Virus record (IMG/VR): IMGVR_UViG_3300031565_004057 | Coordinates: 1 to 20,248 of that record | Source: a virus | Reading direction: 5' to 3' (one strand) | Length of the DNA stretch: 20,248 bases | Part shown: positions 6,589 to 18,072 of the stretch, one piece after another | Position numbering within the stretch: the first letter of the stretch is position 1 | Layout of the letters: each line of letters starts with the position of its first letter | The notes under the pieces: model-generated | Seen by the model: the letters and a program-made list of their open reading frames with translations, nothing else | What the model was told of the DNA's origin: nothing | Databases searched by the model: none | Made by a program: the position numbers and the translations under genes

Positions 6589-9500
6589 TTATCCCCTTCC
6601 TGCTCTTGGGTCACGTCTTCCACGAGCATAAGCACCGGCATTAAGGCTTATATCACTTATAGCACCAGCACCACGTTTGCGAAGTGCTAAATCTATGCTT
6701 TCAGAGTCCATTGCATAAATATAAGTATAATTTTTATTAACTGTTTGCTGCGCTTGCCCCTGTGGTAATCGGCCTGTTTCATTTGCATAATTAAGCGCCG
6801 CAACTCCAATGCTTCTTGCAGAACTATCTTTAATAACATATTCATTGTCTTTTAAAATTCTCATTGTTTCATCTGATTTTAAATTGGGGCCACCTGAATG
6901 CATTTTCTTAATTAAGCCGCCTTCATGAGTATAGATAAGATCGCTGGGGACATTACCAATCCCGATATCTCCACCTCCAGCACCCAAGTAGCCTGCCGCT
7001 GCACCCAATATAGTACCGAATGTTCCCCGTCCTCCTTTACCGCCCATATCGCCAACTGCTTGAAACATTAACCATTTTGCAGCCATATCAGCAATCATAC
7101 GCTTTACAGAGGTTGTAAAAGCCCGCCAATAATCTCCAGCCGATTTAAGTTCACCCATCATAGAATCAAAAAAGACATCGGAAAGAGTGTCACTCATGGC
7201 TGCCGCTGTATTTTTAGTCAAATCTTTCCATGTCTCATATTCATTAGCAAGTTCTTTGCCAAATTCTTTTAAGCCGTCAAGCATACCACGAGCGTAATCG
7301 GATGGGTCTATTGGTTTTGTTTTATCTTCGACGACTCCAGATTGCGCCTGAAGTTCTTTTATTTTTAGAATTAATGCTGCAATTCTTTCTGCTTCTTTTT
7401 GTATGGCAGGTGTTTGTTCTGTTTCTATAGATAATTTTTTATAATAATCTTCAGCCTCTTTTAATAAATCAGAGTACATTTTTTTACGGGCTTTGTTTTC
7501 TAACTCCCATAATTTTATTTTTTTATCATATCCATCTTCTTCGGCATCAATTAATGCTTTGGCTAAATTCTCTTGAAATTTCTCATAATCTTCGTAAAGC
7601 TTTCCAACTGTTTTTATCGAATCGGCTTCCGCATCTTCTCTGTCCTTAACGCTTTTTTCTAAATCTTTTAAGGCCTTATCCTTTATCTTCTGCCTATCAG
7701 CATCAGCTTTTTCACTTGCGGCAGTAAGTTTTTCTTCTGCTGCAATATATTTATCAGCTAAATCAAGCATACGTTTATATCGGTCACTATCTTGATCGAG
7801 TGAGCCTCCTGAAAGTTCCCATGCTTTAAAAGCTTCAAAAAATTCTTCTTCAAGGCTTTTAGCAGCCTTTCTTAAAAGCTCAACGTCCTTAAACCCTTCT
7901 CTAAAAAAAGATAAAATATTTTCTGCTTTAACTGTTGGCCTGATAATCATATCAAGCATTATGTCTTTAAGAGTTGAAACTGGGCCAACAATAGCATCCA
8001 TAGACATCCCAGTTTTTTTCAATAATTCATCTATAAGCCCTGTAATTATAGATAACTCTCCCCGTAACTTTAGCCATGCTTCAGTCCCACGCCCACCTTG
8101 TTGCTCTATTTTTTTCATTTTCTCAACAAGAGCATCTTGTTCTTTGTTTAACGCTACAAGCGTTTTTAAAGTTTTAGTATCTTTTGTTTCAACACCTTCA
8201 ACCCCAAATAAACCACCAGCTCCAAGAACTCTCTCTACAAATTTAAAATAAGATTCATATTTTTTCTTTTCGTCTTTTTCATATTCTTTAAATATAGCTT
8301 TTGCTTCTTCGGTAGCCCCTTTTAGATCACCTACTATAAGTTTTCTCCACTGGATAGACGCAGTAGCAGCCATAAAAGCACCTATTTTCAATGATACCAA
8401 ATCAAGAAAAGTTGTAATAGTTGCGAAGCCAATACCAAATACTTGGATCATTGCTTTTACAAGAGCTACAGGGCTTTCCATAGCCCCCCCAGCCCTTGTA
8501 GCAGCTATAGCAATTTCATCAAAGATTGATTTTATTTGTTTAAGTTGGCTGTCTAACCCTTCCATCATGATTTTATTCATTTCAAGGGCACGATTTGTTC
8601 CGGTAACAGAATCTTTATGGTCATCCCATACCTTTACATTATCCACCATCAAAGCTAAGGTCATGGCAACTCGTCTTTGTGTGCCAGAAAATGCATCAGT
8701 AACTTTAAACCCAGCATCAGATAATCTTTTCAACGAATCTTCGAGCTTTCTGCCTCTTCTGATTGTTATATCTGAAAACGCAAGTGGCGTTGGCAACCTT
8801 TTTAAAACCTTACTAAATTTATCTGTTCCTTGAGTTAATACAGCCAATACCCCACGAAAAGATGTACCAATTGTAGAAGCTTTTAGACCTCTATCACTTA
8901 AAACTCCAAGCCATGCAACTGTATCTTCAAGAGATATATTAAATTGATATGCCGCAACACCCATATAGTTCATGGCTGTTCTCATTTTATCAATCTGTAA
9001 TTTAGATTCTGAAATACCTGCTGCAAGAACATTGGAAATACGCATAGCTTCTGTAGCTGGAAGATTGTATGCCCTCATAACTGTTGTCATAAGATCTGCT
9101 ACATCTTTTAATTCAGCACCAGTAGCAGATGCCAATAAAGCAACAGCCCCAATCGAATTGGTTATTTCTTTCGCACTTAATCCAGCTTGTCCCATTACGG
9201 TTGCTGCACTAATCATATCGGCTGCAAAAAATTTAGTTCTTACAGAAGCATCTCTAATGGCATCCGACATCATCACCATTTCATCTGCGGTTGCTCTGGT
9301 TATAGCTTCTAATGCCTTTAACCCTTGGTGAAAGGCAACAACATCTTTAAGCCCTTGGATAATTGCACCCAATGTTCCAAATATTACTGCACCAGATGCA
9401 ATCCACGCCATTTGTGATAACATCATGTATTTAAAACCAGCACCCCATCTTTCTTGTGCACGCCTTGCATCACCCATCGCACTCGTTTGTTTTCTAACCT

Positions 9501-10392
9501 GATATTCTGAATGCGCAAGTCGTTTGCCAAGTCTATCAAACTGGTGAGCTTGCTGTTCTGTGGCACGGCCAGTATTAGCCATCGCAGATTGCAATTCTTT
9601 AACCTGTACACGAGTTAATTTTGCTATCTTGTCATGTTCTGCAACTTTAAAATTCATTTTGTGGAATTGAGCTGTGGTAGTGTCAGCTGTAATCCCCATT
9701 TTTTTAAGTTCAGCAGTTGGGGAAACTATAGTCGCAGCTTTTGCTGTTTTTGCTTGGGCTACCGCAAGCTGTTTGTTGGCTAATGTTTCCGCCTTTATTT
9801 TACCCTCATAGGCTTTATTAGCGGCAGCTTTTGCTTTAGCAGCCTCAGCCCTTTGTGTTTCAAGGGCTACGTTTTTAAAACCAGTAGAGGTAGCTACTAA
9901 TGTACCCTTCAGATGGTTTAACGCCATTGTGCTTCTATTCGCTGTCTCATAGAATCTTTGACCATTTTTACCACGAGCAGTCATAGCAAGAGATTGTTTT
10001 TCAATAGACCTATTTACAGTATTAAAGGCTTTATTCATTTCGCCAAGTCGTTTTTCATCTCTGCCCATAGCTGTAAAAAGATTGTCAAAGTCTTTGGTCA
10101 TACGTGGAACAGCACCGCTTGTTTTACCAAAAGATTGTGTAGTAGCTTTTATTACGAGATTTCCAGACTTATCAAGAGTCGCTTGAATAGCATTTTTAAA
10201 CTGTGCAACCTGAGCTTTCGCAGCTTTATCGTGGATCGTAATTGTTATCGATGCTTTTTTAGATAAAGATGCTAATTCCTTGTGAAACTTAGCAAGTTGA
10301 TTTTTAGCTCCTTTGATTGTGGCAGCAAGTTGTGCTAAGTTTATTCTATAATCAAGACCGATGCTGTCTGTTGCTGTTGCTGTGATAGCCAT
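6589..10392 (-). CDS. Tail tape measure protein
   Basis: At 1267 residues this is the longest helical protein in the window, and it sets tail length. Residues 1-300 are alanine/lysine/glutamine-rich coiled coil. A hydrophobic stretch at about 320-350 (MLSQMAWIASGAVIFGTLGA) is followed at about 355-520 by the TP901-type core, with its typical MGQAGLSAKEI, NVLAAGISESKL and GLKASTIGTSFRGVLAVL segments. A second hydrophobic region lies at about 640-675, then charged coiled coil to about 1050. The C-terminus carries the conserved HEGGLIKKMHSGG and DETMRILKDNEYVI segments seen in lambda H-like proteins, which are often removed by proteolysis. Expected tail length at about 1.5 angstrom per residue would be near 190 nm. 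The start at 10392 follows AAAGGATG at about 13 bases, and the stop of the preceding orphan gene lies within that site. A diverged copy of its first 45 codons occurs at 11234-11104. Confidence 0.95.
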   Translation of the reverse strand: MAITATATDSIGLDYRINLAQLAATIKGAKNQLAKFHKELASLSKKASITITIHDKAAKAQVAQFKNAIQATLDKSGNLVIKATTQSFGKTSGAVPRMTKDFDNLFTAMGRDEKRLGEMNKAFNTVNRSIEKQSLAMTARGKNGQRFYETANRSTMALNHLKGTLVATSTGFKNVALETQRAEAAKAKAAANKAYEGKIKAETLANKQLAVAQAKTAKAATIVSPTAELKKMGITADTTTAQFHKMNFKVAEHDKIAKLTRVQVKELQSAMANTGRATEQQAHQFDRLGKRLAHSEYQVRKQTSAMGDARRAQERWGAGFKYMMLSQMAWIASGAVIFGTLGAIIQGLKDVVAFHQGLKALEAITRATADEMVMMSDAIRDASVRTKFFAADMISAATVMGQAGLSAKEITNSIGAVALLASATGAELKDVADLMTTVMRAYNLPATEAMRISNVLAAGISESKLQIDKMRTAMNYMGVAAYQFNISLEDTVAWLGVLSDRGLKASTIGTSFRGVLAVLTQGTDKFSKVLKRLPTPLAFSDITIRRGRKLEDSLKRLSDAGFKVTDAFSGTQRRVAMTLALMVDNVKVWDDHKDSVTGTNRALEMNKIMMEGLDSQLKQIKSIFDEIAIAATRAGGAMESPVALVKAMIQVFGIGFATITTFLDLVSLKIGAFMAATASIQWRKLIVGDLKGATEEAKAIFKEYEKDEKKKYESYFKFVERVLGAGGLFGVEGVETKDTKTLKTLVALNKEQDALVEKMKKIEQQGGRGTEAWLKLRGELSIITGLIDELLKKTGMSMDAIVGPVSTLKDIMLDMIIRPTVKAENILSFFREGFKDVELLRKAAKSLEEEFFEAFKAWELSGGSLDQDSDRYKRMLDLADKYIAAEEKLTAASEKADADRQKIKDKALKDLEKSVKDREDAEADSIKTVGKLYEDYEKFQENLAKALIDAEEDGYDKKIKLWELENKARKKMYSDLLKEAEDYYKKLSIETEQTPAIQKEAERIAALILKIKELQAQSGVVEDKTKPIDPSDYARGMLDGLKEFGKELANEYETWKDLTKNTAAAMSDTLSDVFFDSMMGELKSAGDYWRAFTTSVKRMIADMAAKWLMFQAVGDMGGKGGRGTFGTILGAAAGYLGAGGGDIGIGNVPSDLIYTHEGGLIKKMHSGGPNLKSDETMRILKDNEYVIKDSSARSIGVAALNYANETGRLPQGQAQQTVNKNYTYIYAMDSESIDLALRKRGAGAISDISLNAGAYARGRRDPRAGRG

Positions 10393-10401
10393 TATATTAT
10401 A

Positions 10402-10791
10402 TTACACATCCTTTTTTAAATTTATTTTGTGGTATTTTTTAAACAACTCAACTATACCACATACACCCAAAACGGTATCAATCTTGCCCTTTAAAATATC
10501 TTCTCGTATTTTATTACCTTCTTTTATAAGTTTATTCTTTTTGCCTTGCCCTAAAATCTTACTTTTAGAATTTAATTCTAACAATTCTGAACGGTTAAAC
10601 CAATAAGACAGACATTGATTAAAAAGAGATATTATCTTTTCGTCTTTAAGGTTCTTAATAATCTCAAGCCTTTTTCTGTTAATATCCCTTGAAAAAGTAT
10701 CCCATTCATCCGAAAATCTTGAAAGTCGCTTTGATTTGCAGTCAAGATACATACTGTCAACCGATTCGATATAATTTTCTGTAGTAATCAT
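10402..10791 (-). CDS. Orphan A+T-rich gene of an inserted cassette, unknown function
   Basis: I do not recognise this protein. From the ATG at 10791 it has 129 residues; an in-frame TTG at 10803 would add four, but its AAGAG lies too close to act well. The sequence is highly charged and helical-looking, with lysine/arginine-rich stretches (CKSKRLSRFSDEW, GQGKKNKLIKEGNKIRED), no signal peptide and no clear membrane span. The three 60-base lines 10501-10680 have 16 G+C each (27%), against 25 at 9001-9060 in the tape measure and 26 at 12541-12600 in the tail-tube gene. It lies between the broken tape-measure copy and the intact tape measure, and its stop is within the tape-measure ribosome site. 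It is probably an acquired cargo ('moron') gene. No structural role is suggested by composition. Confidence 0.65.
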   Translation of the reverse strand: MITTENYIESVDSMYLDCKSKRLSRFSDEWDTFSRDINRKRLEIIKNLKDEKIISLFNQCLSYWFNRSELLELNSKSKILGQGKKNKLIKEGNKIREDILKGKIDTVLGVCGIVELFKKYHKINLKKDV

Positions 10792-10819
10792 AAATATTTC
10801 CAAGTCTCTTACAATAGTT

Positions 10820-11074
10820 TCAATTATTTTTAACTATACAACTAATTATATATAGAAATTTACTATCTTCGTGGTTCTTTATGTATTCTTCTGCGTGTTC
10901 CTTTTTAGCCCAACATCCAACCATCCAATCCATATCTTCCTCTTTACTTGGGGCAAGAACTAAATATACTTTTTCATATCGCATTACAAAAACTTCAAGC
11001 ATTTTGTTTGTTATCTCTAAATTATTGTCCTTCAGAATGTTAAGTATCTTTTCTTTGGCTATTTCAATATCCAT
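10820..11074 (-). CDS. Small orphan gene of the inserted cassette, unknown function
   Basis: This encodes 84 residues from the ATG at 11074, which follows a near-perfect GAGGAGG with a 7-base spacer. An upstream ATG at 11107 is open but has no ribosome site, so I reject it as the start. The N-terminal 28 residues are a helix-rich segment (MDIEIAKEKILNILKDNN). The rest alternates beta-like and helical pieces (VYLVLAPSKEEDMDWMVGCW, KKEHAEEYIKN, KFLYIISCIV), suggesting a small alpha/beta fold; I cannot name the family. The last two strands plus helix loosely resemble small phage-borne domains that pair a 'GCW/F' strand with an 'A-EYI' helix. The neighbouring cargo gene begins 28 bases further on, so both are probably co-expressed with the tail genes. 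Confidence 0.65.
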   Translation of the reverse strand: MDIEIAKEKILNILKDNNLEITNKMLEVFVMRYEKVYLVLAPSKEEDMDWMVGCWAKKEHAEEYIKNHEDSKFLYIISCIVKNN

Positions 11075-11087
11075 ATAAATACCTCCT

Positions 11088-11234
11088 CTATAAATTCTTA
11101 CACTCATTTTTAGATAAAATTGCTAAATCTTTATAAAATTTAGTGAGTTGACTTTTAAGTCCCTTAATTACATCTCTAAGTTGCGCTAAATTTATTTTAT
11201 TAAGCCCAATGTTATCTGTTGCTGTATCAGCCAT
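11088..11234 (-). pseudogene. Broken duplicate of the tape-measure 5' end (48-codon remnant)
   Basis: The ATG at 11234 opens a 48-codon frame beginning MADTATDNIGLNKINLAQL. The tape measure begins MAITATATDSIGLDYRINLAQ. Both continue with IKG-K-QL-KF-K-LA-LSK, so about 27 of 45 residues match. The DNA similarity includes the ribosome-site region just upstream (GATGTAATA against GATGTGTAATA) and ends near 11104. At the end of the match the tape measure has six A's (TCTAAAAAAGC) and this copy five (TCTAAAAATGA). Restoring one base gives a frame reading SVRIYR against SITITI, so a one-base loss in the A run probably ended it, with TAG at 11088. The copy is more A+T-rich (31 G+C in 11101-11220) than the intact start (45 in 10261-10380). 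It could still be translated as a small peptide, but I regard it as a remnant. Confidence 0.72.
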
Positions 11235-11251
11235 TATCTATTACATCTCCC

Positions 11252-11494
11252 TTACAAATATTTCCAAGCCCTTTTATTCTGTTCTTCAGGTGTCGCCGCC
11301 TTATTTTTTATTCTACCACCATTCTTCATTTGACTTTTCTCATGCTCAAACTGTATGTTTTGAATCGTACTCATTATAATAAGTTGTGATAATGTAAATT
11401 TATCTTCAACCTCACCCGTACTCATTTTTAATGCTTCCGCAGCACTATCTACAATAGCAAATTCCTGTAAATAGTCTGGCAGAATTAAATCGTT
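11252..11494 (-). CDS. -1 frame extension of the tail assembly chaperone (T part of a G-T fusion)
   Basis: This is an 80-codon frame with no credible start of its own. It is open in the -1 frame relative to the chaperone gene, from 11539 down to a TAA at 11252, and overlaps the last codons of that gene. It begins NDLILPDYLQEF and ends TPEEQNKRAWKYL. Lambda G and many siphovirus chaperones make a minor G-T product by -1 frameshifting just before the tape-measure gene, and both position and geometry match here. A shift in the A6 run would give a 285-residue product: 205 chaperone residues plus these 80. The frame would otherwise be an unexplained 230-base gap. Confidence 0.8.
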   Translation of the reverse strand, partial: NDLILPDYLQEFAIVDSAAEALKMSTGEVEDKFTLSQLIIMSTIQNIQFEHEKSQMKNGGRIKNKAATPEEQNKRAWKYL

Positions 11495-12108
11495 TTTTCC
11501 TCCCTTTTTACGATTTGACGGGTGAGCATGTGCAAAAAATCAATAACGCGCCCTCCAATACGGTCTTTCTCCATTTGAATAAAGAATATTTTTTGTGCAT
11601 CATAAAAAGATATATTTTCTTCAATCCAATCCCTCGATACTGTTCTGTCCTGTGAGTTACATATAGCGAACACAACTCCAACATATATATCAAGAACTGT
11701 ATTCATAATATTACTAAGTCCACCGTAACTTATAACATCTTTAATAAGCTCAACCATATCAAGATATTCATTAGAATCATTATCAACCGTTACAGTTCGA
11801 TTTAATTTGTCTTGTATGGCTTTAAATATAGGCAATAAATCAATCTTTTTAATCATTTCTGTAATAGCGTCTAATGCACATGCCATTATCTTTTGGGTTT
11901 TAATGCTGGACATGCGAAGCTGGAATGTCTTATCAGCTATAACAAAGGTGTCTTGAGACAATTCTGGTGTGTGAGCTTCTGCAAACTCTTTAGTGGTTGG
12001 CATGGTGGGGACAGGTTTTTTATCCCCACCACCAATATTAGAATCAGATTTTTTCTTAAATATATCTTCTGCCGGTAAACCTTCTTCGGCTACGTTTTTC
12101 TTACTCAT
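11485..12108 (-). CDS. Tail assembly chaperone (G-like)
   Basis: This 207-residue protein lies between the tail-tube gene and the tape measure, the fixed place of the siphovirus tail chaperone that coats the tape measure before tube polymerisation. The N-terminal 55 residues are polar, with a proline/lysine-rich stretch. The core starts at about 56 (IADKTFQLRMSSIKTQKIMACALD) and is helical, with the look of chaperone G proteins: a short beta segment, then a helical bundle. The product ends in a lysine/glutamate tail (VKREEKTI) where the reading frame can shift. ATG at 12108 follows AAGGGGG with a spacer of about 12 bases. No enzymatic motif is present. The assignment rests on position, length and the frameshift extension more than on motifs. 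Confidence 0.82.
   Translation of the reverse strand: MSKKNVAEEGLPAEDIFKKKSDSNIGGGDKKPVPTMPTTKEFAEAHTPELSQDTFVIADKTFQLRMSSIKTQKIMACALDAITEMIKKIDLLPIFKAIQDKLNRTVTVDNDSNEYLDMVELIKDVISYGGLSNIMNTVLDIYVGVVFAICNSQDRTVSRDWIEENISFYDAQKIFFIQMEKDRIGGRVIDFLHMLTRQIVKREEKTI
11487..11509 (-). promoter_or_regulatory. Probable programmed -1 frameshift site of the chaperone gene
   Basis: On the minus strand the end of the chaperone gene reads GTA AAA AGG GAG GAA AAA ACG ATT TAA. It has an A5 run (11509-11505), a Shine-Dalgarno-like AGGGAGG (11505-11499) and an A6 run (11498-11493). The zero-frame codons GAA AAA ACG let the lysine tRNA re-pair perfectly on AAA one base back. The classic tandem heptamer A AAA AAC is present but one phase off, so this would be single-tRNA slippage. 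The -1 frame is closed by TGA at 11542-11540, so the shift must fall between there and the zero-frame stop. Confidence 0.6.
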
Positions 12109-12160: not shown

Positions 12161-13021
12161 TTAATAACTTAACATCCATTTCTTGTAGAAATCATATCCG
12201 GTAGTACCATCGTCAAAAGTCATTTCAACTGCTTGAGCTGCCAATGTTATTGAGGTTTCATATTCCTCTGCGGCATCTTTAAAATCCATGTCTCCACCAG
12301 TAAAATTTCTGACTTTTGGAAAATATAGTGCATGTTGAATTTTAACAGCGCCAGTTGAACTAAGTTTGGTATCCCAGAATAACATTGCCGACCTGATAGT
12401 ATCAGTTCCCATTCTATCAATAAAAGCGGTTCTTTTAACTTTTACAATATCATCTTCAAGTGCAGGAGCTACAGGAAAGCCAGCTCCTTCAAGTGTAAGC
12501 TGACTTGCTGTAAGACTTTCTACAACAGCCAGATTAAAAGAGCTTTCTAAGCTTGCCGCTGTCTGAGAACCACACACAACAACATCATACTGACTAAAAC
12601 TTGGAGTGCCATCTAATCCGACTTTATATCTTGCCTTACTGCCTATAAGAGAACCAACTACAAACGGAGTAGCAAGAACAGTATTATGAATCGTCTGTCC
12701 CATAATAAGTGCCTCAACATAAGGGCTTAAATCACTTGTGCTGAATGTGATTTGCGCTGTTCTGTCTATCTCCCAGAATTTTCTGGATGTTTTTGGAACA
12801 CCCCTTTTGAGTTCCCTCATTTCTTTTGCAACCGGAACTCTGGCAGCAGTAATGCTACCACAATCATACCAGCCTGTAAGTGGTGACGTTACGTTTAATG
12901 CCAATGCTGGTGCTGTGTTCCCAATATAAGTGTTTTTATAAGTAGTGGACATCCATAATCTTGGTGATACTATTTCTACAAAATCGAGTTGTAAATTTGG
13001 TGCATCTTTAGTTGTTGCCAT
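12161..13021 (-). CDS. Major tail tube protein
   Basis: This 286-residue beta-rich protein lies directly upstream of the chaperone and has a strong AGGAGG ribosome site 10 bases before its ATG, as expected for the most abundant tail protein. The N-terminal part (APNLQLDFVEIVSPRLW... WYDCGSITAARVPVAKEMREL) and the C-terminal part (YETSITLAAQAVEMTFDDG) read like the paired sheets of the tail-tube fold that builds hexameric rings. The middle has a 30-residue insertion around GTPSFSQYDVVVCGS. It lacks C-terminal Ig-like repeats. About 50 bases separate it from the chaperone start and 31 from the upstream gene. The assignment is by order, size and fold appearance. Confidence 0.82.
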   Translation of the reverse strand: MATTKDAPNLQLDFVEIVSPRLWMSTTYKNTYIGNTAPALALNVTSPLTGWYDCGSITAARVPVAKEMRELKRGVPKTSRKFWEIDRTAQITFSTSDLSPYVEALIMGQTIHNTVLATPFVVGSLIGSKARYKVGLDGTPSFSQYDVVVCGSQTAASLESSFNLAVVESLTASQLTLEGAGFPVAPALEDDIVKVKRTAFIDRMGTDTIRSAMLFWDTKLSSTGAVKIQHALYFPKVRNFTGGDMDFKDAAEEYETSITLAAQAVEMTFDDGTTGYDFYKKWMLSY

Positions 13022-13052: not shown

Positions 13053-13544
13053 TTATATTATTTGCCGTTCACCTTGCCCCCAGATTAATAAATTGTTACC
13101 TATAATCATTGGCACAGACAATGGTGTAAACGTTTGATTTAATATCCTTGGATTTATTGTGCCATTATCATAAGTTTCGATTATAAAATTACCCTTCACC
13201 CCCTTCCATAATAATACTCTGAAATATGGTATTAATTTTAATGGTGCTGCTCCATCTTTTTTTATTTTCTCAATAGAATTATTTTCTTCTCCATTAAAAG
13301 ACAAATCACTTATACTGTCTATTTTAGCTTCATGGCTTATTTTATCATTGCCAGCTAATCTAATTTCTACTTTAGATACTATATTGTTACTGCATAACAT
13401 TTCAAGCAATGATTGTAATTGTGTTAATTGATATTGGATTTCTTTGTCTCTGCAAACAAACCGTTTACAATGTGATCTGTTTTTTTTATTAGCGGCATAA
13501 GTATTGCCACAATATTTACATTTTATTTTGCATGGTATTGGCAT
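13053..13544 (-). CDS. A+T-rich protein with cysteine-rich (zinc-ribbon-like) N-terminus, unknown function
   Basis: This 163-residue protein begins with a compact cysteine cluster: C5, C9, C12, H25, C26 and C31, in the order CKIKCKYCGNTY then RSHCKRFVC. That fits a small zinc knuckle or treble-clef-like metal site. A helix with leucine spacing follows (QYQLTQLQSLLEMLC), then a beta-rich C-terminal half (about 100-160, ending LLIWGQGERQII) that may be a virion domain. Position between tail terminator and tail tube is not usual for a zinc-ribbon protein. Composition is distinct: 14 G+C in 13261-13320 and 15 in 13381-13440, against 25 in 13621-13680 in the next gene. It has only a weak ribosome site and starts 8 bases after the terminator stop. 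It may be an acquired gene or a divergent tail accessory protein. Confidence 0.65.
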   Translation of the reverse strand: MPIPCKIKCKYCGNTYAANKKNRSHCKRFVCRDKEIQYQLTQLQSLLEMLCSNNIVSKVEIRLAGNDKISHEAKIDSISDLSFNGEENNSIEKIKKDGAAPLKLIPYFRVLLWKGVKGNFIIETYDNGTINPRILNQTFTPLSVPMIIGNNLLIWGQGERQII

Positions 13545-17121: not shown

Positions 17122-18072
17122 TTACCAGCTTCCGTATAATTCATTTATTCTATATTTAATATTCCAGCCATAAACTACTATCTCGTTTGAAACATCTGGA
17201 TTTGTTGCATCAAGCCTTCTTAAATTTATAGCAAAATTATCACCTTTTTTAATCTCATTGCCCTCGCCATCAATATCATAATCAACTGTAAGCGATAACA
17301 TGTAGCAAGAATATTGAGCGTTTCTACTTATCAAGACAGCCTGTTCTACCAATACATTATTTGATGTTGCTGGAACTATTGTATCACATGTATGATTTTC
17401 CCATGCCGCTTGAAACTTAAAATTATCTCCGACATCTTCTGCTCCAGACAACCACACATAAATATCAAAAACAAAATCACTTTCTCCATCCCATCTATAA
17501 GGAACTCTTGCTTTAAAAAATAACTCCTCGTCATCATCATTAAATACTGGCATTGAATAGCCAAAGAAAACTCCTTGGTTTACTTGGGTAGGTTTGCCCT
17601 TAGCTATTTGATGGACTGTATCAACAGGAGGTCTCAATGTTAAATATCTCCTGGCATCTCCATGTAATGTAACTATACCACCAGAATCTATGTTTAAATA
17701 ATCAATGGCATTGCCAAATCTTCCAGTACTTGCATTAACACCAATTGCAAGCCCTTGTAATATATTAATGCTGGCGTTGGCACGGATTATATTAGAAGCG
17801 TTAATAACAATACTGGCATTCGCATTTATAATATTTGATTGAAGAGTATCAATACTGGCATTAGACCTAACTACATCAGCTTGTAATGTATCTATGCTTG
17901 CATTGGCACGAATTATATCGAGAGAACTTGAATATCTGGCATCGTTATACCCTCTGTCACCAACACCATCCGCATTTGTTGGGTCAGTAGCAGCCTTAAG
18001 AATAGTAAAAGAGCCTTCTCTTGGCTGTCTTTGCCCTATTCTTATATTATTTATCTCTCGTTCCCAAGTCAT
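17122..18072 (-). CDS. Fibre-like virion protein with 14-residue coiled-coil repeats
   Basis: This 316-residue protein has three parts: a polar N-terminal arm (1-53, with DPTNADGVGDRGYNDARYSS), four and a half copies of a 14-residue repeat at 54-116 (see the separate repeat entry), and a beta-rich C-terminal domain (about 120-316) with ALFFKARVPYRWDGESD-like strands and a closing IVVYGWNIKYRINELYGSW. Two-heptad repeats with asparagine in the core are typical of trimeric phage fibres, and the C-terminal domain resembles a jelly-roll head. It is therefore probably a trimeric decoration or receptor-binding fibre of the virion, though its position before the lysis genes does not say whether on head or tail. 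AAAGG lies about 9 bases upstream of the ATG. Confidence 0.65.
   Translation of the reverse strand: MTWEREINNIRIGQRQPREGSFTILKAATDPTNADGVGDRGYNDARYSSSLDIIRANASIDTLQADVVRSNASIDTLQSNIINANASIVINASNIIRANASINILQGLAIGVNASTGRFGNAIDYLNIDSGGIVTLHGDARRYLTLRPPVDTVHQIAKGKPTQVNQGVFFGYSMPVFNDDDEELFFKARVPYRWDGESDFVFDIYVWLSGAEDVGDNFKFQAAWENHTCDTIVPATSNNVLVEQAVLISRNAQYSCYMLSLTVDYDIDGEGNEIKKGDNFAINLRRLDATNPDVSNEIVVYGWNIKYRINELYGSW
17725..17913 (-). repeat. 42-base (14-residue) coiled-coil repeat in the fibre-like gene
   Basis: Residues 54-116 align as IRANASIDTLQADV, VRSNASIDTLQSNI, INANASIVINASNI, IRANASINILQGLA and a partial IGVNAST. The unit is exactly two heptads, with hydrophobic I/V/L at positions 1, 7, 10 and 14 and N-A-S at 4-6. 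The copies differ in DNA, so the repeat is old rather than a recent expansion. Confidence 0.85.

What the first reader, a model, noticed from the sequence alone, without database searches (positions are those of the whole stretch)
10256..11257. Duplicated, frameshifted tape-measure start next to an A+T-rich two-gene insertion
A second copy of the tape-measure ribosome site and first 45 codons (11257-11104) lies about 840 bases upstream of the intact start (10414-10256). It is broken, most simply by loss of one A in a run of six. Two orphan genes sit between the copies and are much more A+T-rich (16 G+C in each of three sampled 60-base lines) than the tail genes. A simple transposition would not copy the tape-measure start. 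A likely history is that the cassette arrived by recombination with a related phage or as an element that rebuilds the 5' end of its target gene, leaving the old end as a remnant. If other phages carry cargo between such repeated tape-measure starts, this would be a recurring insertion route at one essential gene. The copy and break are seen; the history is inferred.
Basis: partly seen in the sequence, partly recalled or inferred. Interest (0 to 1): 0.75.

Follow-up and report, generated by a model that had tools for sequence, protein, structure and literature searches.

The report
Small insertion beside phage tape-measure gene
One uncultivated tailed phage carries an extra 464-base stretch in its tail operon, made of a dead copy of the start of its tape-measure gene plus one small unknown gene; related phages lack the stretch, so it looks like ordinary phage gene gain by imprecise recombination.

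Summary
The repeat is real. 11253-11107 (- strand) matches the tape-measure (TMP) start and its upstream ribosome site: 73-75% DNA identity, 27 of 42 aligned residues identical, self-BLAST E 9e-15. Two parts of the reading change.

(1) The copy is not an obvious one-base frameshift. Homology stops at TCTAAAAA, nothing after it matches the TMP, and a sixth A would only open a TGA.

(2) The cassette holds one gene, not two. The 133-codon gene (10402-10791) is core: all three distinct relatives that span the site have it between the chaperone extension and the TMP. They lack both the TMP-start copy and the 84-aa gene (10820-11074).

The true insert is 464 bp, bounded by an exact 13-bp direct repeat, CTTGGAAATATTT (11256-11268 and 10792-10804): the end of the chaperone extension plus the ribosome-site region of the 133-codon gene, single in relatives. 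Changes private to the copy fall in codon positions 4/8/4 (4 synonymous, 12 not, as if neutral); changes private to the TMP fall 0/0/8. The copy is most likely a decayed passenger.

Best account: a lineage-specific, moron-like gain of one small gene by non-homologous recombination that also duplicated the TMP start. No recurrence was seen. The 84-aa gene's function and origin are unknown.

The parts
11485..12108 (-). tape-measure chaperone (gpG-like), upstream core gene
   Evidence: homologues in L002, L007, L008 at the same place, 53-73% aa identity; no PHROGs or Pfam match, so the assignment rests on position and the frameshift arrangement
11533..11539 (-). TTTTTTG, probable -1 frameshift heptamer joining the chaperone to its extension
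   Evidence: the extension frame is open from here, and GATTTTTTG followed by FFAHAHP / FFVHNHP is conserved in all four phages
11252..11539 (-). chaperone extension (gpT-like); stop codon 11254-11252
   Evidence: 55-84% aa identity with relatives; ends ...RAWKYL as in L002 and L007
11256..11268 (-). left copy of the 13-bp direct repeat CTTGGAAATATTT (native end of the extension)
   Evidence: exact repeat, spacing 464; single in the relatives
11107..11253 (-). second, truncated copy of the TMP ribosome site and first about 45 codons; reads as a 48-codon frame 11234-11088
11082..11087 (-). AGGAGG, Shine-Dalgarno sequence of the 84-aa gene, 7 nt before its ATG
   Evidence: read directly from the sequence
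10820..11074 (-). 84-aa gene, the only cargo gene; function unknown
   Evidence: no relative in viral contigs, phages, plasmids or the related contigs; no family; low-confidence model, mean pLDDT 69, order H H E E H E
10792..10804 (-). right copy of the 13-bp direct repeat, immediately before the ATG of the 133-codon gene
10402..10791 (-). core gene between the chaperone extension and the TMP (133 codons from TTG 10803; 129 from the conserved ATG 10791)
   Evidence: homologues in L002 (56%), L007 (32%), L008 (31%) at the same place; predicted all-helical at low confidence, mean pLDDT 60
6589..10392 (-). intact tape-measure protein, 1267 aa
   Evidence: PHROGs tape-measure families to 1e-40; PF10145 at 4e-32

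Best explanation
The window carries a lineage-specific 464-bp insertion at the junction of the tape-measure chaperone extension and the next core gene. Its order is: a copy of the last codons of the 133-codon gene, the TMP ribosome site and the first 45 TMP codons (body of the 133-codon gene left out); a new 84-aa gene with its own AGGAGG; and a repeat of the last 13 bases of the chaperone extension. It was most likely made by non-homologous (microhomology or template-switch) recombination during phage replication, which copied the TMP start, picked up a foreign gene and returned to the chaperone end. The 13-bp repeat leaves the extension's coding sequence complete and the next gene's ribosome-site region intact, so the operon still reads. 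The TMP-start copy is a passenger that has drifted roughly neutrally; the 84-aa gene is moron-like cargo read from the late tail transcript. Shown: the insert, its limits, the empty site in relatives, the homology, the pattern of changes. Inferred: the recombination route, the expression, and that the 84-aa gene is useful.
For: Three distinct relatives go straight from extension to core gene to TMP with no extra DNA. The insert is bounded by an exact 13-bp repeat of a sequence that is single and native in relatives. The copy includes the bases before the TMP start (AGGGAGATGTAA against AAGGATGTGTAA, the last codons of the 133-codon gene), so it is DNA-level copying and not a shared domain. With L002 as third sequence, changes private to the copy are 4/8/4 by codon position (4 synonymous, 12 not; neutral expectation 74% non-synonymous) against 0/0/8 for the TMP (Fisher p = 0.0013 by position, 0.03 by synonymy). 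An open frame survives that many neutral changes about half the time. The 84-aa gene has a well-spaced ribosome site.
Against: Counts are small (41-43 codons), and with L007 or L008 as third sequence the contrast weakens. The copy keeps an open 48-codon frame with a start, and its stop directly abuts the next ribosome site. In codons 1-26 the window TMP is closer to L002 (88% aa) than to the copy (70%), which a simple duplication within this lineage does not predict, unless the TMP start was later exchanged. Three joints must be explained and no donor for the 84-aa gene was found.
Confidence: 0.55

Rival explanations
1. Replacement by a related phage's tail segment: the recipient's own TMP (perhaps in a phage without the 133-codon gene) was cut after codon 45, and a segment starting at the last 13 bases of the extension and carrying the 133-codon gene and a new TMP was joined on, leaving the old TMP start as a remnant.
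For: The TMP is strongly mosaic among relatives, with blocks matching L002 and others matching L007. The window TMP's first 26 codons are closer to L002 than to the copy. The 133-codon gene is less conserved (56% to L002) than its neighbours.
Against: A recently retired TMP start should show the TMP's own purifying pattern, but the copy's private changes are mostly non-synonymous; an old event is still compatible. No relative lacks the 133-codon gene. The 84-aa gene needs a further event.
Confidence: 0.28
2. The 48-codon frame is a working small protein, a paralogue of the TMP N-terminus that might bind the tail chaperone and tune tape-measure assembly.
For: Start, upstream purine-rich site and open frame are intact; length differences are in frame; 9 of 11 residues invariant among four TMPs are kept; the frame ends exactly at the next ribosome site. 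The plain pairwise comparison departs from neutrality (p 0.0004-0.005).
Against: Polarised with L002, that departure belongs to the TMP branch; the copy branch looks unconstrained. Absent from all relatives. No independent homologue.
Confidence: 0.1
3. A discrete small mobile element (like an MPME, an IS or a homing element) with a 13-bp target-site duplication.
For: About 450 bp between exact 13-bp direct repeats, with a clean empty site in relatives.
Against: No terminal inverted repeats (p = 0.64), no second copy of the insert found, no transposase, nuclease or RNA family. Part of the insert is a copy of this phage family's own TMP start.
Confidence: 0.05

Closest known systems
Moron-type gene insertion in lambdoid and other tailed phages (general knowledge)
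   Same: One small foreign-looking gene added between two core structural genes of an otherwise collinear module, with sharp edges, absent from close relatives
   Different: Classical morons bring their own promoter and terminator, not shown here; this insert also carries a partial copy of a neighbouring gene's start and a 13-bp terminal repeat
Mosaicism of phage tail genes by illegitimate recombination (general knowledge)
   Same: Joints at gene edges; mosaic TMP; leftover gene fragment
   Different: The leftover is a duplicate of a gene start that is still intact downstream
Mycobacteriophage mobile elements (MPME1/MPME2; PMC3029335)
   Same: Similar size (MPME1 is 439 bp), sharp insertion in one of several close relatives
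   Different: MPME insertions have an IR-L with 6 extra bases beside it and recur at several sites; this insert has no inverted repeats, has a 13-bp direct repeat and was found once

Membership tests
Moron-like gene insertion | extra gene between two genes that are adjacent in relatives | tested here: met
Moron-like gene insertion | own promoter and terminator around the gene | not tested
   no promoter or terminator scan was run; only the ribosome site was read
Moron-like gene insertion | composition or phylogeny differing from the phage | tested here: inconclusive
   29% G+C, but core neighbours reach 28-30% too; no homologues for a tree
MPME / small mobile element | terminal inverted repeats | tested here: not met
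   p = 0.64
MPME / small mobile element | several copies or sites | tested here: not met
   no second site for the 84-aa gene in the related contigs, phages, plasmids or viral contigs
Homing endonuclease, intron or intein | nuclease or self-splicing RNA or protein domain | tested here: not met
   no Pfam, PHROGs or NCBIfam match for the 84-aa gene and no Rfam match in 10200-11500
DUF7336-like small phage proteins (for the 84-aa gene) | profile match | tested here: not met
   no Pfam match; only a weak fold resemblance of the C-terminal half, best BFVD hit E 0.028 on a pLDDT 69 model
gpG/gpGT tape-measure chaperone pair | -1 slippery heptamer at the overlap, extension in the -1 frame, just upstream of the TMP | tested here: met
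   T TTT TTG conserved in four phages

The most novel reading that the evidence does not exclude
The 48-codon frame is a new small protein made from the tape-measure N-terminus, expressed together with the 84-aa gene to act on the tail chaperone, and such TMP-start duplications are a recurring way for phages to add genes at this junction.
Probability: 0.06. Interest if true: 0.6.

Novelty: new member of a known kind. Interest (0 to 1): 0.22.

Why it matters
If the account is right, this is a well-bounded example of how an extra gene enters an essential, tightly packed operon without breaking it: the recombination repeated 13 bases that hold both the end of one gene and the ribosome-site region of the next, and dragged along a dead gene start. 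It can be dated by comparing the dead copy with the live one. It is a tidy case study and not a new mechanism.

Tried and rejected
Frameshift by loss of an A: rejected (no downstream homology; the alternative frame stops at once; and sequence). 84-aa gene as displaced TMP sequence: rejected (p 0.15-0.81 in three frames). First impression from the pairwise comparison that the copy was under coding constraint: withdrawn after polarising changes with L002. Terminal inverted or direct repeats inside the insert: none above chance. Relatives of the chaperone or major tail protein in bacterial genomes: none, so no host or prophage context. The major tail protein has no match in named phages; the TMP matches only its common central domain. 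The weak Foldseek hits of the 84-aa model are not used for function. Literature searches found no described case of a duplicated TMP start around cargo, but they were few and limited to open-access text.

Full report
What the window is. The window is a whole IMG/VR-type virus record of 20,248 bases, probably a fragment. All main genes run on the minus strand. They form a siphophage tail operon with a major-tail-like gene (12161-13021, assigned by position), the chaperone pair, the TMP (6589-10392) and the tail-tip genes. Named phages in the public collection give no match to the major-tail-like protein and only distant matches to the central part of the TMP.

The observation. The second TMP start is real. 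The DNA alignment score is 90 against at most 28 in 500 shuffles, and the protein score is 119 against at most 55 in 2000 shuffles; self-BLAST gives E 9e-15. The copy runs from just after the chaperone extension's stop (about 11253) to 11107. It includes the last few codons of the gene that normally precedes the TMP (AGG GAG ATG TAA against AAG GAT GTG TAA). At 11107 the homology ends in the run of A. Nothing beyond it matches the TMP in DNA (p = 0.47) or in any frame. Adding an A would place TGA as the next codon. 'Frameshifted' should therefore read 'truncated'.

What relatives show. Scans with the TMP, the major-tail protein, the chaperone and the 133-codon gene found the same small set of contigs. 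L002 and L003 are nearly the same phage; L007 and L008 are two more. In all of them the order is chaperone, -1 extension, 125-131-codon gene, TMP, joined directly. The 133-codon gene is thus a core gene of this phage group (56, 32 and 31% identity), with the conserved motifs SRF/Y..EW..FS and YWF.RS. It is not cargo. The TMP-start query finds two places in the window and one in each relative that spans the site. The 84-aa gene is found in none, nor in viral contigs, phages or plasmids. The single-sequence scan of viral contigs reaches close relatives only.

Limits of the insert. An exact 13-bp repeat, CTTGGAAATATTT, lies at 11256-11268 and 10792-10804, spacing 464. In relatives the matching sequence (for example CTTGGAAATATCTATGA in L002) occurs once: it encodes the end of the extension (W-K-Y-L) and directly precedes the ATG of the core gene. 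The window has therefore gained 464 bp. The left copy finishes the extension (stop now TAA). The right copy keeps the bases before the core gene's start. Precise loss of one repeat and the insert would give the arrangement of the relatives.

Selection on the copy. Compared pairwise, copy and TMP start differ less at the protein level than neutral change would give (p 0.0004-0.005). Taking L002 as the third sequence changes the reading. Differences private to the copy fall 4/8/4 on codon positions 1/2/3 (4 synonymous, 12 non-synonymous), while those private to the TMP fall 0/0/8. Neutral change gives 74% non-synonymous, and Fisher tests of copy against TMP give p = 0.0013 by position and 0.03 by synonymy. 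The constraint thus belongs to the TMP branch and the copy drifts. The numbers are small, and the result is weaker with the more distant L007 or L008 as reference. The open 48-codon frame is not strong evidence for function, since about half of neutral simulations with 16 changes keep it.

Dating. The neutral branch of the copy carries 16 changes in about 125 sites, and the TMP branch 8 changes in about 42 third positions. These are rough figures, not corrected for multiple hits. They suggest that the copy has been free of constraint for about as long as the two sequences have been apart. In codons 1-26 the window TMP is closer to L002 (88% aa, no second-position change) than to the copy (70%), while in codons 27-46 it is closer to the copy (65%) than to L002 (40%). 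Recombination at the TMP start in one of these lineages is the likely reason; the whole TMP is mosaic among the four phages.

The 84-aa gene. It has AGGAGG seven bases before its ATG. A single-sequence AlphaFold model is of modest confidence (mean pLDDT 69) with element order H H E E H E. Foldseek finds only weak hits, the best being a DUF7336 protein of Bacillus phage Spock (E 0.028, prob 0.99); solved structures give nothing. No profile library matches. Its function is open; 'moron-like cargo' is an inference from position.

Verdict. An ordinary but well-bounded case of phage mosaic evolution: gain of one small gene by non-homologous recombination with a duplicated, decaying TMP start. No sign of a recurring route, a mobile element, or a rebuilt target gene. 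The history (duplication within the lineage or replacement by a related phage) is not settled.

Noticed in passing
11533-11539 (-): T TTT TTG heptamer in the chaperone frame, conserved in all four phages with FFAHAHP/FFVHNHP following in the -1 frame; a clear gpG/gpGT-type -1 frameshift in a phage group with no profile match for this chaperone.
   Followed up: partly
10402-10791 (-): A core gene of unknown function between the chaperone extension and the TMP, conserved in this phage group (SRF/Y..EW..FS ... YWF.RS), predicted all-helical; possibly a third tape-measure assembly factor.
   Followed up: partly
6589-10392 (-): The TMP is strongly mosaic: residues about 220-350 match L002 closely while residues about 46-200 and 370-600 match L007.
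   Followed up: no
17754-17918 (-): Repeated NASI(D/N)-LQ units in the 316-aa gene 17122-18072, seen as a 39-nt self-match at 85%; resembles a fibre repeat.
   Followed up: no
13053-13544 (-): A+T-rich core gene with a CKYCG...HCKR..CR zinc-finger-like N-terminus between the tail-completion genes and the major-tail-like gene, kept in all relatives.
   Followed up: no
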